This document shows positions 52,199-64,000 of a DNA stretch of 64,000 nucleotides, piece by piece. Source of the DNA: Providencia vermicola (GTDB taxonomy: Bacteria > Pseudomonadota > Gammaproteobacteria > Enterobacterales > Enterobacteriaceae); contig NZ_JAGSPI010000004.1 of assembly GCF_020381325.1 (NCBI RefSeq), positions 62,001 to 126,000 on the forward strand, written 5' to 3'. A program made the position numbers and the translations under genes. The stretch's first letter is position 1, and each line of letters begins with the position of its first letter. The notes below the pieces were generated by a model. It saw only the letters and a program-made list of their open reading frames with translations. It was not told where the DNA came from and searched no databases.

Positions 52199-53644
52199 TT
52201 AATTCATCATATGAATAATTTTTTCTCGCATTTTTTTCCCTTCTTGCGTTAATGCATCATATTTAATGATGTGATTATTAATAATATCTTTGCAATCAAA
52301 ACCTTGATTGTTTTTTACCCGCCAATCTGCCCCATTGACTAACAACAATTCAGCAACATCTAAAGCATGACTATTTAAAGCATCATGGAGTGGTGTATTT
52401 CCTAAATTATCTTTTATATCAACCAGTAAACCATTATCTAACAATATTTTAGACTGCATCACTCGGCCACTTTGAGCCGCTACATGTAAAATACTTTTTT
52501 GCTGGATTAATTGTGTATTTTTAATGGCTTGCCCATACTGTGAATCGAGCAGGATTTGCATAAACTGCCCATTCATAGCCCTTGCTGATTGATTCGCTAA
52601 AAAATCAAGGTCACATGCTTTATTATGACATTCTAAAAGATTTGAAAACTCAACAACATTGCCTTTTCTAATGGCACTTTTACAACTTTCTTGCCAATTA
52701 ATTTTTTGTTGCTCTTCGATGATTGGGAACACTTTTAGCGGGAGCTCGACAGCTTTATCATACTCCCCAGTAATCGCATTCCAATTATTCCACGGTTTAT
52801 GTTTACACATCACCTTAATAATTTTAACCATCGTATGTGCAATAAAACTTCTTGTTAAGAATCGGTGTGGTAACCAATTTTTCCAAGAACTCTGTTCGCT
52901 ATAAGCCATTTTAATACGCGTTCCCAGCGCTGAAGGGATAGGTAAAGTATTTTGTAAAGAATCAAGCCAGTCATATTGCACAGTATAAAATCGTATCAGC
53001 CCTTCATTCGCCATTCGTTCCGCAGCATCATAATCAAGCCCGATCTTATTTACCGTATTCCTTGCAAGCCCTGCGGGGCTAAACACAACTGCAGGGCTAT
53101 GGCTCGCCAATGCGGCAATTGACGCAAGGCCACCACCTAATGAATGCCCCGTACAAATCAGATTTCCTCTTACTGCGTTAAATAAAATATTGGTCAAACC
53201 AACAGATTGATAATACTGGGGTTCATACTGCCCTAAGCCTTGACGGATGTTGGCATAGAAATCCACAATATCGTTTGTACCAGCAAAACAAAGAATATAT
53301 AAATTATTAAATCTGCATATATTGGCTTGAAATCCTGAGGATACGTCACCAAGTAACTCTGTATCAATACCTAATGCATTCAATTGAGGCGTATTTAATC
53401 TCTCTACACCTAACATCTGTTCCCAATCTGTATGGTAAGCCCCATACGATAACATGGCTAAAACAAAGTCTTTTTTTTGTGCGTCACAGCCAAAAAAATG
53501 TTCTTTTAACGTATTTTTTGGCCAACGCTCTCTTTCACATAATGAAATATCTAAACTGCGATTTTGCAAGTAAATGTCTAATCCTTCCCGAGCAAGAGAA
53601 AGGCCATCCACAGAATCAAGTGTTGGTTGTATTGAAAAAGGCAT
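52199..53644 (-). CDS. Lipase class 3-like protein with C-terminal ankyrin repeats
   Basis: 481 residues. An alpha/beta-hydrolase core spans about 55-300: oxyanion-type FAGTNDIVDFYANIRQGLGQ and the nucleophile elbow ICTGHSLGGGLASIAALA. The Asp and His of the triad cannot be fixed by eye. From about 385 two or three ankyrin repeats follow (KSILHVAAQSGRVMQSKILL; NTPLHDALNSHALDVAELLL; NGADWRVKNNQG). No signal peptide is seen, so it is cytosolic or delivered by a secretion system. Lipase plus ankyrin architecture suggests a phospholipase effector or a host-interacting enzyme; no secretion or immunity gene adjoins it. Inserted between srmB and grcA, where E. coli has none. Confidence 0.75.
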   Translation of the reverse strand: MPFSIQPTLDSVDGLSLAREGLDIYLQNRSLDISLCERERWPKNTLKEHFFGCDAQKKDFVLAMLSYGAYHTDWEQMLGVERLNTPQLNALGIDTELLGDVSSGFQANICRFNNLYILCFAGTNDIVDFYANIRQGLGQYEPQYYQSVGLTNILFNAVRGNLICTGHSLGGGLASIAALASHSPAVVFSPAGLARNTVNKIGLDYDAAERMANEGLIRFYTVQYDWLDSLQNTLPIPSALGTRIKMAYSEQSSWKNWLPHRFLTRSFIAHTMVKIIKVMCKHKPWNNWNAITGEYDKAVELPLKVFPIIEEQQKINWQESCKSAIRKGNVVEFSNLLECHNKACDLDFLANQSARAMNGQFMQILLDSQYGQAIKNTQLIQQKSILHVAAQSGRVMQSKILLDNGLLVDIKDNLGNTPLHDALNSHALDVAELLLVNGADWRVKNNQGFDCKDIINNHIIKYDALTQEGKKMREKIIHMMN

Positions 53645-60717: not shown

Positions 60718-61081
60718 GGGGCTGATTCTGGATTCGACGGGATTTGCGAAACCCAAGGTGCATGCCGAGGGGCGGTTGGCCTCGTAAAAAGCCGCAAAAA
60801 AATAGTCGCAAACGACGAAAACTACGCTTTAGCAGCTTAATAACCTGCTTAGAGCCCTCTCTCCCTAGCCTCCGCTCTTAGGACGGGGATCAAGAGAGGT
60901 CAAACCCAAAAGAGATCGCGTGAATGCCTTGCCTGGGGTTGCAGCGTTAAATTTAATCAGGATAGTTTGTTGATGGCGTGTCTGTCCGCAGTTGGCAAAT
61001 GAATTTAAAGACTAGACTAAGCATGTAGTACCGAGGATGTAGAAATTTCGGACGCGGGTTCAACTCCCGCCAGCTCCACCA
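60718..61081 (+). ncRNA. ssrA: tmRNA (SsrA)
   Basis: 364 nt from GGGGCTGATTC to the 3' CCA. The tRNA-like ends are present: acceptor GGGGCUG with CAGCUCC, and the T-arm GGGUUCAACUCCCG. The tag frame at 60808-60840 encodes ANDENYALAA and ends TAATAA. The 3' end (CGGGTTCAACTCCCGCCAGC) is a common attachment site; an integrase follows at once, so this copy is probably rebuilt by the island's left att site. Confidence 0.97.
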
Positions 61082-61149: not shown

Positions 61150-61262
61150 ATGTCCTACGCTGTCCTATTTTATCCCACCCAAGCTAATTCCTTTAGGCCC
61201 ATTGATAGGCCCAACGAAAAGAACTAACATCTTTGTTGGGCCTAAACGCATGGAGATTTTTC

Positions 61263-62504
61263 ATGGCAAGAAAAACAAAGCCATTAACCGATACCGAAAT
61301 CAAAGCAGCTAAACCACAGGACAAGGACTATCAGCTGTATGATGGTGATGGACTCACACTGCTAATCAAATCTAGCGGAAGCAAGTTATGGCAATTCCGT
61401 TACTACCGCCCGTATACAAAACAAAGGACCAAACAAAGTTTTGGGGCCTACCCTGCAGTCACACTTTCAGATGCTAGAAAACTTAGAGCAGAATCTCGCT
61501 CATTACTGGCAAAAGATATTGACCCTCAAGAATATCAGAAAGATCAAATAAGAAACTCTCAAGAGGCTAAAACCAATACCTTTCAACTTGTCGCTGAACG
61601 TTGGTGGGAAGTGAAGAAGTCCACCGTAACCGAAGATTATGGTAATGATATCTGGCGCTCACTTGAACGAGATGTGTTCCCTGCCATTGGTGACATCAGC
61701 GTTACCGATATCAAAGCGCATATATTGGTTCAAGCAATACAACCGGTTCAAGCTAGAGGTGCGCTAGAAACGGTTCGTCGCCTATGTCAGCGTATCAACG
61801 AAGTGATGATCTATGCTCAAAATACTGGCTTAATTGATGCCGTACCGAGTATCAATATTGGCAAAGCTTTTGAAAAACCCAAGAAAAAGAATATGCCAAG
61901 TATTCCCCCTGATCAGCTACCAAAGCTCATGCAGACAATGCGTACAGCTAATATTATCTTACCTACCAGATGTTTGTTTATGTGGCAGCTACTCACCATC
62001 TCGCGCCCTGCCGAAGCCGCTGAAGCCCGTTGGGATGAAATCAACTTTGAAACCAAGGAATGGAAGATACCGGCTGCTAGAATGAAGATGAACCGTGAGC
62101 ACACCGTTCCATTGTCTGACGCTGCTTTAGCTATTCTAGAGCTAATGAAACCACTCAGTGGTCATCGTGAGTTTATCTTTCCTAGCCGTATCAAGCCTGC
62201 CCAACCGATGAATAGCCAAACCGTCAATGCAGCATTAAAACGCGCTGGGTTCGGCGGTGTCTTGGTTTCTCACGGTCTACGCTCAATTGCTAGTACCGCC
62301 CTAAATGAGCAAGGCTTCCCACCCGATGTTATTGAAGCCGCCCTTGCCCACGTTGATAAAAACGAAGTTAGACGTGCCTATAATCGTAGTGACTACCTAG
62401 AGCAAAGACGCCCTATGATGCAATGGTGGGCTGATTTTATTGAATCGGCTGACAGGGGAAGTATTATAGAAGGCGGGATAAGGGGAATATCGTTAGTTGG
62501 GTAA
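61263..62504 (+). CDS. P4-type tyrosine integrase of an ssrA-borne island
   Basis: 413 residues. The N-terminal DUF4102/arm-binding domain is MARKTKPLTDTEIKAAKP ... YDGDGLTLLI. The SAM-like core binding domain follows, then the catalytic domain with Arg (TISRPAEAAEARW), His-x-x-Arg (SHGLRSIAST), the second His (AALAHVDKNE) and Tyr (VRRAYNRSDY). All catalytic residues are intact, so it is likely active. The ATG at 61263 has GGAG 8 bases upstream. It would recombine the ssrA 3' end with the island end outside the window. Confidence 0.93.
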   Translation: MARKTKPLTDTEIKAAKPQDKDYQLYDGDGLTLLIKSSGSKLWQFRYYRPYTKQRTKQSFGAYPAVTLSDARKLRAESRSLLAKDIDPQEYQKDQIRNSQEAKTNTFQLVAERWWEVKKSTVTEDYGNDIWRSLERDVFPAIGDISVTDIKAHILVQAIQPVQARGALETVRRLCQRINEVMIYAQNTGLIDAVPSINIGKAFEKPKKKNMPSIPPDQLPKLMQTMRTANIILPTRCLFMWQLLTISRPAEAAEARWDEINFETKEWKIPAARMKMNREHTVPLSDAALAILELMKPLSGHREFIFPSRIKPAQPMNSQTVNAALKRAGFGGVLVSHGLRSIASTALNEQGFPPDVIEAALAHVDKNEVRRAYNRSDYLEQRRPMMQWWADFIESADRGSIIEGGIRGISLVG

Positions 62505-62838: not shown

Positions 62839-64000
62839 ATGTACGAACTATCTAACGAAATATATGAGAAAATTCAGAAACAAATACAAGCGGTTACAGG
62901 AAAATTAACAGAAGAACAACTTGATGAACGATTAGCAGAAGATATTTCTGATGCAATGGACAACTTAAGTTTACTCAACAACCATATTCAAGAAGAACTA
63001 GAAAAATTAAAAGAAAATAGCGAATGGAAACGTTTTACTATTGCTTTTTATGGTGAAACCAATGCAGGTAAATCAACTTTAATTGAAGCTTTACGTTTAT
63101 ATCTCTGCGAAAAAACTAAAAAAGAGAGTCAGTCAAAGTTTAAAGAAATCCAACAGCAGCTTGGATTAACGCAAGAAGCATTTGATAAAGTTTGTCGTAT
63201 AATTATGGATATGACGAAAGCGATTGAAGAAATACAACAAGAAATAACCGAATTGTCGAAAAAATATGCTGAGCCAATTATACAAGCAGAGTTAACCATT
63301 CGCCAAACAAAAGAGAAAAACATCCAAGAGTCAAAAATATTGGCAACAAGACATAACAATACGATAAACGAAATTGAGTCTGAAATTTTTAACTTAAGTG
63401 AATTAGTGGAAAAACTAAAAGCAGAGCAAACTTGGATACAAAAAATAATAGCCTGCTTCTTCAAATCTCATGAAGAAAAACAGCTTATTGAGCTTGAAGA
63501 TCACTGTTCACAAGTGAAGAAACAACAACAAATTAAGCAGCAAAAACTCCTACAATGCCAACAACAAGAAAAACAACAGGCAACTGCGGCTCTTCAACAA
63601 ATACAAGAGAAAAAACAGCAAGAACTCACCCTATTAAGTCAAAAGGAGCAAAAGCTACAACAAAAACAACAACAAGCTGAGCGAGAAAAAAACCGTTTAG
63701 ATAATGATGCTAAGAAATTAACCGATTTTGCTGATGGGCAGATTATTGGGGATGGTCGTTCTGATTTTACTCGTAATAATACTTCTTTCGACTTTAATGT
63801 CGATGGACAAGCATTTTCTTTAATTGATGTTCCGGGTATCGAAGGTGATGAAACGATTGTAAGTACGCCAATTGAAGAGGCTGTACGCAAAGCCCACGCT
63901 GTATTTTATGTTACTCGTACAGCACGCCCACCACAAACGAGTGATGGTGAAAATGTAACGACAAAAGGAACGCTGGAAAGAATTAAAAAACATCTTGCCG
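62839..64000 (+). CDS. Dynamin-like or Era-like GTPase with coiled coil inserted in the G domain (partial, runs off the window)
   Basis: At least 387 residues from the ATG at 62839, preceded by AAGGGAAG; the C-terminus is off the window. A short helical N-terminus (1-60) leads to a P-loop FYGETNAGKSTLIEAL (residues 72-80). G3 is LIDVPGIEGDE at about 328-338. Between them lie about 200 residues of Gln/Lys/Glu-rich coiled coil, broken near 195-210 by a hydrophobic basic tip WIQKIIACFFKSHEEK. G4 is not reached. I do not recognise a named family. Location in an integrase island and very AT-rich codon use mark it as acquired. Defence, membrane remodelling or ribosome binding are all possible; none is shown. 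Confidence 0.8.
   Translation, partial: MYELSNEIYEKIQKQIQAVTGKLTEEQLDERLAEDISDAMDNLSLLNNHIQEELEKLKENSEWKRFTIAFYGETNAGKSTLIEALRLYLCEKTKKESQSKFKEIQQQLGLTQEAFDKVCRIIMDMTKAIEEIQQEITELSKKYAEPIIQAELTIRQTKEKNIQESKILATRHNNTINEIESEIFNLSELVEKLKAEQTWIQKIIACFFKSHEEKQLIELEDHCSQVKKQQQIKQQKLLQCQQQEKQQATAALQQIQEKKQQELTLLSQKEQKLQQKQQQAEREKNRLDNDAKKLTDFADGQIIGDGRSDFTRNNTSFDFNVDGQAFSLIDVPGIEGDETIVSTPIEEAVRKAHAVFYVTRTARPPQTSDGENVTTKGTLERIKKHLA

What the first reader, a model, noticed from the sequence alone, without database searches (positions are those of the whole stretch)
62839..64000. GTPase with a ~200-residue coiled coil inserted between P-loop and DxPG, in an ssrA island
The sequence shows G1 (GETNAGKST, residues 72-80) and G3 (DVPG, near 331) about 250 residues apart, far more than the 40-60 usual in small GTPases or dynamins. 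The gap is filled by Gln/Lys-rich heptads with a hydrophobic, basic tip (WIQKIIACFFKSHEEK) that could insert into membrane like a paddle. Island-borne large GTPases next to integrases are often antiphage or membrane-guarding systems. The family is not one I recognise, so it is the best candidate for a new system here.
Basis: partly seen in the sequence, partly recalled or inferred. Interest (0 to 1): 0.78.

Follow-up and report, generated by a model that had tools for sequence, protein, structure and literature searches.

The report
Eleos dynamin with membrane-tipped coiled hairpin
The gene is one half of a known pair of bacterial dynamin-like proteins thought to defend against viruses, but its GTP-binding domain is interrupted by a long two-stranded rod with a probable membrane-gripping tip, a design shared by most of the relatives sampled.

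Summary
In detail: the 792-residue protein has G1 at 72-80, DVPG at 330-333, and between them a Gln/Lys-rich coil with tip WIQKIIACFFK (199-209). "Unknown family" is wrong. Completed past 64000, it is LeoBC (PADLOC E 2e-135), followed 16 bp later by LeoA (1.8e-155): the LeoA/LeoBC dynamin pair called Eleos, kin of LeoABC in E. coli. What I met in no paper searched is the anatomy. AlphaFold2 gives helices 112-195, 199-207 and 211-292 between the P-loop helix and switch I. In 76 non-redundant sequences the two arms change length together (r 0.99; 9-10 class changes on a tree built without the insert). The tip is a strongly amphipathic, aromatic, basic 12-mer. In the split LeoC/LeoB form, LeoC ends in a transmembrane-like helix near that point in 4 of 4 cases (0 of 80 unsplit inserts). 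A mostly Pseudomonas clade fuses LeoBC to a GHSLG alpha/beta hydrolase. Best reading: a membrane-docking hairpin reporting to switch I of a defence dynamin. Family and anatomy are well supported; membrane insertion, gating and defence are inferred. One hairpin-less relative was met.

The parts
60718..61081 (+). ssrA (tmRNA) gene, the presumed integration target of the island
   Evidence: ARAGORN
61233..62504 (+). tyrosine integrase of the island (PRK09692 family)
   Evidence: Pfam and NCBIfam (885.8 bits)
62839..64000 (+). leoBC, N-terminal 387 of 792 residues; the gene goes on to about window coordinate 65217 in the own genome (L002:2840-5218); leoA follows at L002:5235-6944
63052..63078 (+). 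G1/P-loop GETNAGKST (residues 72-80)
   Evidence: G72 T74 G77 K78 S79 T80 invariant in 73 sequences
63172..63423 (+). hairpin arm 1 (helix, residues 112-195)
   Evidence: AlphaFold2, ten-residue block pLDDT 84-97, falling to 72 at the tip end
63433..63471 (+). hairpin tip, amphipathic segment (residues about 199-211; predicted helix 199-207)
   Evidence: block pLDDT 64-72 here
63469..63714 (+). hairpin arm 2 (helix, residues 211-292)
   Evidence: AlphaFold2, block pLDDT 84-97
63733..63771 (+). switch I / G2 motif DGxIIGxGxxDxT (residues 299-311, T311 invariant)
63826..63837 (+). G3 motif DVPG (residues 330-333)

Best explanation
The gene is leoBC, the larger half of an Eleos-type LeoA/LeoBC pair of bacterial dynamin-like proteins, carried with other defence genes downstream of ssrA. 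Its G domain is interrupted, between the P-loop helix and switch I, by an antiparallel coiled-coil hairpin of about 80 residues per arm whose apex is an amphipathic, aromatic, basic helix. I propose that the tip docks on the inner membrane while the usual dynamin paddle (hydrophobic segment at about residues 650-710) is a second membrane contact. Because the rod leaves and re-enters the G domain right before switch I, membrane state could be passed to the nucleotide site. With LeoA supplied in trans, the pair would assemble on phage-damaged membrane and either hold it together, as B. subtilis DynA does, or damage it further, as the lipase-like fusions of Pseudomonas relatives hint. Shown: family identity, gene pair, insert position, coordinated arm lengths, conserved amphipathic tip, transmembrane-like end of LeoC in split forms. 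Inferred: antiparallel packing, membrane insertion, gating of switch I, defence role in this strain.
For: Family: LeoBC E 2.4e-135, LeoA E 1.8e-155; DLP_LeoA_gen 691 bits for the partner; LeoA crystal structure 4AUR matched by the partner, E 3.9e-70. Dynamin fold: Foldseek best hits BDLP, IniA, SynDLP, MxB, Cj-DLP pair. Hairpin: model helices 112-195, 199-207, 211-292, same layout in a second relative with longer arms (389-476, 479-487, 491-584). Arm lengths r 0.987 in 76 non-redundant sequences, 14 length pairs; 9 and 10 class changes on a tree built without the insert, classes disagree in 2 of 77 rows; heptad periods. Tip: mean moment 0.68 and hydrophobicity 0.78 against 0.30 and 0.15 in arms, 0 of 1328 arm windows reach both; 0.018% of 59,493 background 12-mers do. 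Split LeoC: 4 of 4 end in a transmembrane-like window (1.79-2.23), 0 of 80 unsplit inserts examined reach 1.6. Defence setting: HerA, SIR2, a type I restriction enzyme and PrrC in the same stretch; patchy occurrence, 0 of 12 genus mates, 6 of 394 genomes of the order including its own; WYL-like regulator within 1.5 kb upstream on the same strand in 18 of 90 loci. Hydrolase fusion in 13 of 80 named loci (three of the 13 checked with Pfam).
Against: No wet-lab datum for any hairpin-bearing LeoBC. Tip confidence is only moderate (block pLDDT 64-72), and no coordinates or PAE were available, so arm packing was not measured. Foldseek TM-scores to the dynamins are low (0.12-0.33 of the query for the 16 hits at E 0.001 or better): the match is by domains, not overall shape. 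LeoA, the partner, bound neither lipid nor nucleotide in vitro (PMC4159319, passages). The window's own tip is weaker than the family mean (0.595/0.727; 0.12% of background 12-mers reach that). G4 is not canonical (N-K/H without Asp), so GTP use is not assured. The four rows of class 91/58 differ from 91/54 in one arm only, too little to count as a class change, and L126 and L128 are odd. A hairpin-less LeoBC exists (L133). The window's own gene has no WYL neighbour in the loci examined. The ETEC genes were linked to vesicle release, not to phage.
Confidence: 0.65

Rival explanations
1. The hairpin is a protein-docking arm, not a membrane anchor: its tip binds LeoA or a neighbouring LeoBC and sets the spacing of a heterotypic dynamin polymer.
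For: Dynamin pairs work by heterotypic assembly; in the Cj-DLP1/2 pair an extra domain is an assembly domain (PMC6104087, passages). The tip motif is conserved beyond mere hydrophobicity (Q and K/R at 201-202, P-E-E at 211-213).
Against: In split LeoC about the same place carries a transmembrane-like helix (4 of 4), which points to membrane. Arm lengths differ by tens of residues between relatives, awkward for a fixed protein interface.
Confidence: 0.22
2. The pair serves membrane vesicle release or general membrane upkeep, as claimed for LeoABC in ETEC, and its presence among defence genes is hitch-hiking on an island.
For: Deletion of leoA, leoB or both about halved vesicle-borne protein in H10407 (PMC4159319, passage). 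Vesicle release and defence are not exclusive.
Against: Patchy distribution, plasmid carriage and restriction genes nearby (McrC-like and HsdR-like clusters in 4 loci each of 90, with one member of each identified) and a recurrent WYL-like regulator look like defence, not housekeeping. Eleos is listed as a dynamin-like defence system (PMC11811056, passage).
Confidence: 0.15
3. An SMC/Rad50-like ATPase rather than a GTPase.
For: Two long coils flanking a P-loop protein; weak AAA_15 hit (E 0.0033, 17.5 bits against a cut-off of 32.1).
Against: Ordered G1, G2 and G3 motifs, LeoBC profile and dynamin fold hits. Switch I and G3 follow the insert as in GTPases.
Confidence: 0.02

Closest known systems
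Eleos / LeoA-LeoBC (PADLOC PDLC03839-03841)
   Same: Both genes, their order, dynamin helical domain in the partner, other defence genes nearby
   Different: The 601-position PADLOC LeoBC profile leaves out the hairpin: residues about 87-298 fall between profile positions 98 and 101
LeoC+LeoB+LeoA of E. coli (ETEC H10407; Michie 2014)
   Same: LeoC and LeoB profiles match the two sides of the coil, same partner
   Different: There two genes, with a transmembrane-like helix ending LeoC; here one gene with an amphipathic hairpin tip
Cj-DLP1/Cj-DLP2 of Campylobacter jejuni
   Same: Heterotypic bacterial dynamin pair; Foldseek hit
   Different: Its extra domain is an N-terminal assembly domain; the terms hairpin and coiled do not occur in the paper's main text
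G-alpha subunits
   Same: Helical domain inserted between P-loop helix and switch I (recalled); weak fold hits
   Different: Globular helical bundle, no membrane tip (recalled); profile hit of a relative is below cut-off (E 0.0041, 16.7 of 48.8 bits), so no kinship is claimed
DynA of B. subtilis
   Same: Bacterial dynamin that protects against phage by delaying lysis (PMC8844932, abstract)
   Different: Two dynamins fused in one chain (PMC4159319, passage); not compared by sequence here

Membership tests
Eleos (LeoA/LeoBC) | LeoBC protein by profile | tested here: met
   E 2.4e-135, 451 bits
Eleos (LeoA/LeoBC) | LeoA gene next to it | tested here: met
   Starts 16 bp downstream; LeoA E 1.8e-155
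Eleos (LeoA/LeoBC) | protection against phage | not testable with these tools
   -
Dynamin-like proteins | G1, switch I Thr, DxPG | tested here: met
   Invariant or nearly so in 73 sequences
Dynamin-like proteins | canonical G4 (N/T)KxD (recalled as typical) | tested here: not met
   N397 invariant, K398 nearly so (H here), no Asp at the expected place. This holds for the LeoBC relatives aligned, not this gene alone. I file it as LeoBC by profile and call it dynamin-like by fold; whether it is a true GTP-using dynamin stays open
Dynamin-like proteins | G domain plus long helical neck/trunk with a hydrophobic tip (paddle) | tested here: met
   Model; residues 651-710 have low block pLDDT (45-57)
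Split LeoC+LeoB form | two genes, LeoC ending in a membrane helix | tested here: not met
   One ORF; no 19-residue window of 1.6 or more in the insert
SMC/Rad50-like ATPases | ABC-type ATPase head by profile or fold | tested here: not met
   Only a sub-threshold AAA hit; dynamins lead the fold hits

The most novel reading that the evidence does not exclude
LeoBC is a membrane-gated switch: the coiled-coil rod acts as a lever between a lipid-inserted tip and switch I, so that membrane injury by phage directly turns nucleotide binding or hydrolysis on. Rod length is tuned in matched steps between lineages, and the transmembrane LeoC, the amphipathic tip and the fused or neighbouring alpha/beta hydrolase are alternative front and back ends of one membrane-guarding machine.
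Probability: 0.3. Interest if true: 0.78.

Novelty: new variant of a known kind. Interest (0 to 1): 0.52.

Why it matters
It gives the poorly understood Eleos pair a concrete, testable part: a hairpin that links a probable membrane contact to switch I. It also offers a reason why E. coli has LeoC and LeoB as two proteins: the break falls where the hairpin apex would be, and there LeoC has a membrane helix. The lipase-like fusions suggest an effector. The PADLOC LeoBC profile skips the hairpin, so profile-based annotation hides it.

Tried and rejected
SMC/Rad50-like identity was rejected. A chance or frame artefact was rejected. The island's right end was not found: the ssrA 3' end has no second copy with up to 2 mismatches in the genome, nor an exact repeat of 12 bases or more of the stretch tried within 39 kb. 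A class-wide family search with the LeoBC profile was too loose (151 of 369 genomes, mostly other GTPases to judge by short match ranges) and was not used for counts. Profile search of solved structures gave coil matches that I take as meaningless (hemagglutinin, apolipoprotein) and weak P-loop hits to immunity-related GTPases. No relative of the protein in 50,697 phage records at E 1e-5. The hairpin-less form was sought with L133 as query in viral contigs (only its own contig came back) and plasmids (the same 9 records), so how common it is stays unknown. A fold search in viral structures gave giant-virus dynamins and AIG1, not followed.

Rows dropped before counts: from 87 loci (L049-L135), L110, L134 and L135 gave no full LeoBC (contig end, split, cut); 84 plus the window protein were aligned. 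Eight rows over 90% identical and the hairpin-less L133 were dropped, leaving 76, the window's own among them. The count of 80 is of the 85 aligned sequences, near-identical ones included; the other five miss the motif pattern or lack the insert. Neighbour counts are of 90 loci; the script prints 91 because it counts L135, whose neighbours were not searched. The genome scan kept 80 of 159 relatives, ranked by likeness to the query, so counts lean towards hairpin-bearing kin. The tree is a quick one (SH-aLRT only) with long-branch warnings for L133, L126, L128 and others, and its class changes include the hairpin-less L133.

Full report
What was checked. The ORF starts at ATG 62839 and leaves the window. 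The window is G000:C5:62001-126000, and the own genome completes the gene as 792 aa, followed after 16 bp by a 569-aa ORF. tmRNA and integrase stand upstream.

What it is. PADLOC gives LeoBC (E 2.4e-135), LeoB (1.2e-65, residues 239-790) and LeoC (5.1e-27, residues 6-165) for the first protein, and LeoA (1.8e-155) for the second. NCBIfam gives LeoA/HP0731 family for the second at 691 bits against a cut-off of 325, but nothing over cut-off for the first. The second matches the LeoA crystal structure 4AUR; the first has no convincing relative of known structure by single-sequence search. So this is the LeoA/LeoBC pair. The name Eleos as a dynamin-like defence system was seen in a passage of PMC11811056. 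The paper that first tested it (Millman et al. 2022, recalled) did not come up in the library and was not read.

Anatomy. AlphaFold2 on 73 sequences gives mean pLDDT 86 and pTM 0.70: strand 66-72, P-loop, helix 78-88, helix 92-108, then helix 112-195, helix 199-207, helix 211-292, then switch I and strands 315-321 and 324-330. The insert thus sits between the P-loop helix and switch I. Foldseek finds BDLP (E 5.7e-8), IniA, SynDLP, MxB, the Cj-DLP pair and other dynamins, with low TM-scores (0.12-0.33 of the query among 16 hits at E 0.001 or better). A second model, of a relative with longer arms from Stutzerimonas, has helices 389-476, 479-487 and 491-584 (pLDDT 77, pTM 0.49). Its alignment shares sequences with the first, so it is not an independent test.

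Evidence that the insert is a hairpin. In 76 non-redundant sequences (75 relatives and the window's) arm 1 and arm 2 lengths correlate at 0.987 with slope 1.04. Common pairs are 91/54 (41 rows), 123/90 (10), 97/65 (6) and 91/58 (4). On a tree built without the insert, arm classes change 9 and 10 times and agree in 75 of 77 rows (the small 54 to 58 step does not count as a class change). The window protein (120/83) is sister to Rodentibacter L049 and L130 (both 91/54), so its arms differ by +29 and +29 from its nearest kin. Pseudomonas (123/90) and Lactobacillales (122/90, beside kin at 97/65) are separate cases. Equal growth of both arms is what an antiparallel rod demands. Arm lengths rest on the alignment's placing of the tip; in 44 sequences with a 161-residue insert no alignment is needed, and these show heptad-like periods.

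Evidence for a membrane tip. The tip 12-mer has mean hydrophobic moment 0.68 and hydrophobicity 0.78 (Eisenberg scale); none of 1328 arm windows reaches both, and 0.018% of 59,493 12-mers from neighbouring ORFs do. The window's own tip is weaker, 0.595 and 0.727. The family pattern is roughly S-L-W-Q-K-L-L-x-L-F-x-K-x-P-E-E. In the split forms the second arm, at the start of LeoB, is only 52 to 66 residues before switch I, so matched arms are not kept there. Michie et al. had noted the LeoC anchor (PMC4159319, passages); the words coiled coil, coiled-coil and insertion do not occur in that main text. The two forms look like two ways of fixing the same point to membrane.

Modularity. A hairpin-less LeoBC (L133, 601 aa, G1 to G3 61 residues) is followed by a LeoA-like GTPase (the partner judged by its motifs, not scanned). 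In 13 of 80 named loci LeoBC carries an N-terminal domain of about 280 residues with GHSLG (15 of 15 counting two viral contigs); the three scanned with Pfam hit DUF726 (E 3.2e-12, 3.6e-18, 3.7e-12), and Foldseek finds esterases at low rank for the modelled one (E 0.012 and weaker). By record title 11 are Pseudomonas, one Stutzerimonas, one Pantoea. The 13 non-redundant fused rows form one clade (support 98). In L055, outside that clade, the same domain is a separate gene just upstream (E 3.5e-13 to DUF726). Whether it cleaves lipid is unknown.

Setting. Downstream in the own genome lie HerA and SIR2 genes, each in two ORFs, a type I restriction enzyme and PrrC; further ORFs look like HsdS and HsdM by eye. 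78 of 80 named loci have a LeoA-pattern ORF within 400 bp. 18 of 90 loci have a WYL-like regulator within 1.5 kb upstream on the same strand, close kin counted apart and some as pieces (a profile made here; WYL confirmed by Pfam in four cluster members). In 21 genomes related to the window's, Pfam WYL matches number 22 in about 84 Mb, but those are other lineages and another model. A tmRNA gene stands upstream in 4 of 60 further loci scanned, with an integrase between in L051, L057 and L058, which are close kin, and without one seen in L062. Occurrence is patchy: 0 of 12 genus mates, 6 of 394 genomes of the order including its own, 72 of 5426 E. coli genomes with DNA like the split form, some only in part, 9 plasmid records, no phage record. 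Named loci span Pseudomonadota 61, Bacillota 9, Campylobacterota 5, Elusimicrobiota 2 and one each of three other phyla, one of them an archaeal MAG.

How it may work. Shown: the items above. Inferred: the tip enters the inner membrane; the rod couples membrane state to switch I; LeoA completes an active heterotypic assembly, as Liu et al. 2018 suggest for LeoA with LeoB and LeoC (PMC6104087, passages); the outcome is membrane holding (compare DynA, PMC8844932, abstract) or membrane damage. Against it: LeoA alone bound no lipid and no nucleotide in vitro (PMC4159319, passages), and the G4 motif of LeoBC lacks its Asp.

Novelty. Searches for LeoBC, LeoA/LeoB/LeoC, Eleos, and dynamin with insertion, coil or DUF726 listed no paper whose title or abstract start describes this hairpin, its matched arm lengths or the hydrolase fusion. 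Only open-licence papers are held and five were opened, by passages or abstract, so this is weak evidence of absence. I rate it a new variant of a known kind.

Noticed in passing
L002:12893-15900 (own genome, about 8 kb past the window gene): HerA and SIR2 genes of one defence pair each lie in two ORFs, so this copy looks broken.
   Followed up: partly
L056 and 12 other named loci; L055:6443-7906: LeoBC fused to, or preceded by, a GHSLG alpha/beta hydrolase (DUF726) in a clade of mostly Pseudomonas.
   Followed up: yes
18 of 90 loci, for example L053:7007-7909, L071:6887-7894, L046:5055-5969: WYL-like regulator within 1.5 kb upstream of LeoBC on the same strand.
   Followed up: partly
L051, L057, L058, L062: LeoBC/LeoA downstream of a tmRNA gene also in Pseudomonas, with an integrase between in the first three.
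   Followed up: partly
L140 (E. coli AF46): An OXA-48-family gene with IS1 elements on both sides lies before a shortened ORF that precedes leoA (annotation only).
   Followed up: no
L044 (Raoultella plasmid): LeoBC/LeoA sits beside a TerD/TerY/VWA cluster.
   Followed up: no
window 52199-53644 (-): 481-aa ORF with a GHSLGG lipase-like motif and ankyrin-like repeats by eye.
   Followed up: no
L129 (viral contig): A 99% identical LeoBC with an integrase of the same cluster and length in another public contig; no tmRNA in the stretch held.
   Followed up: partly
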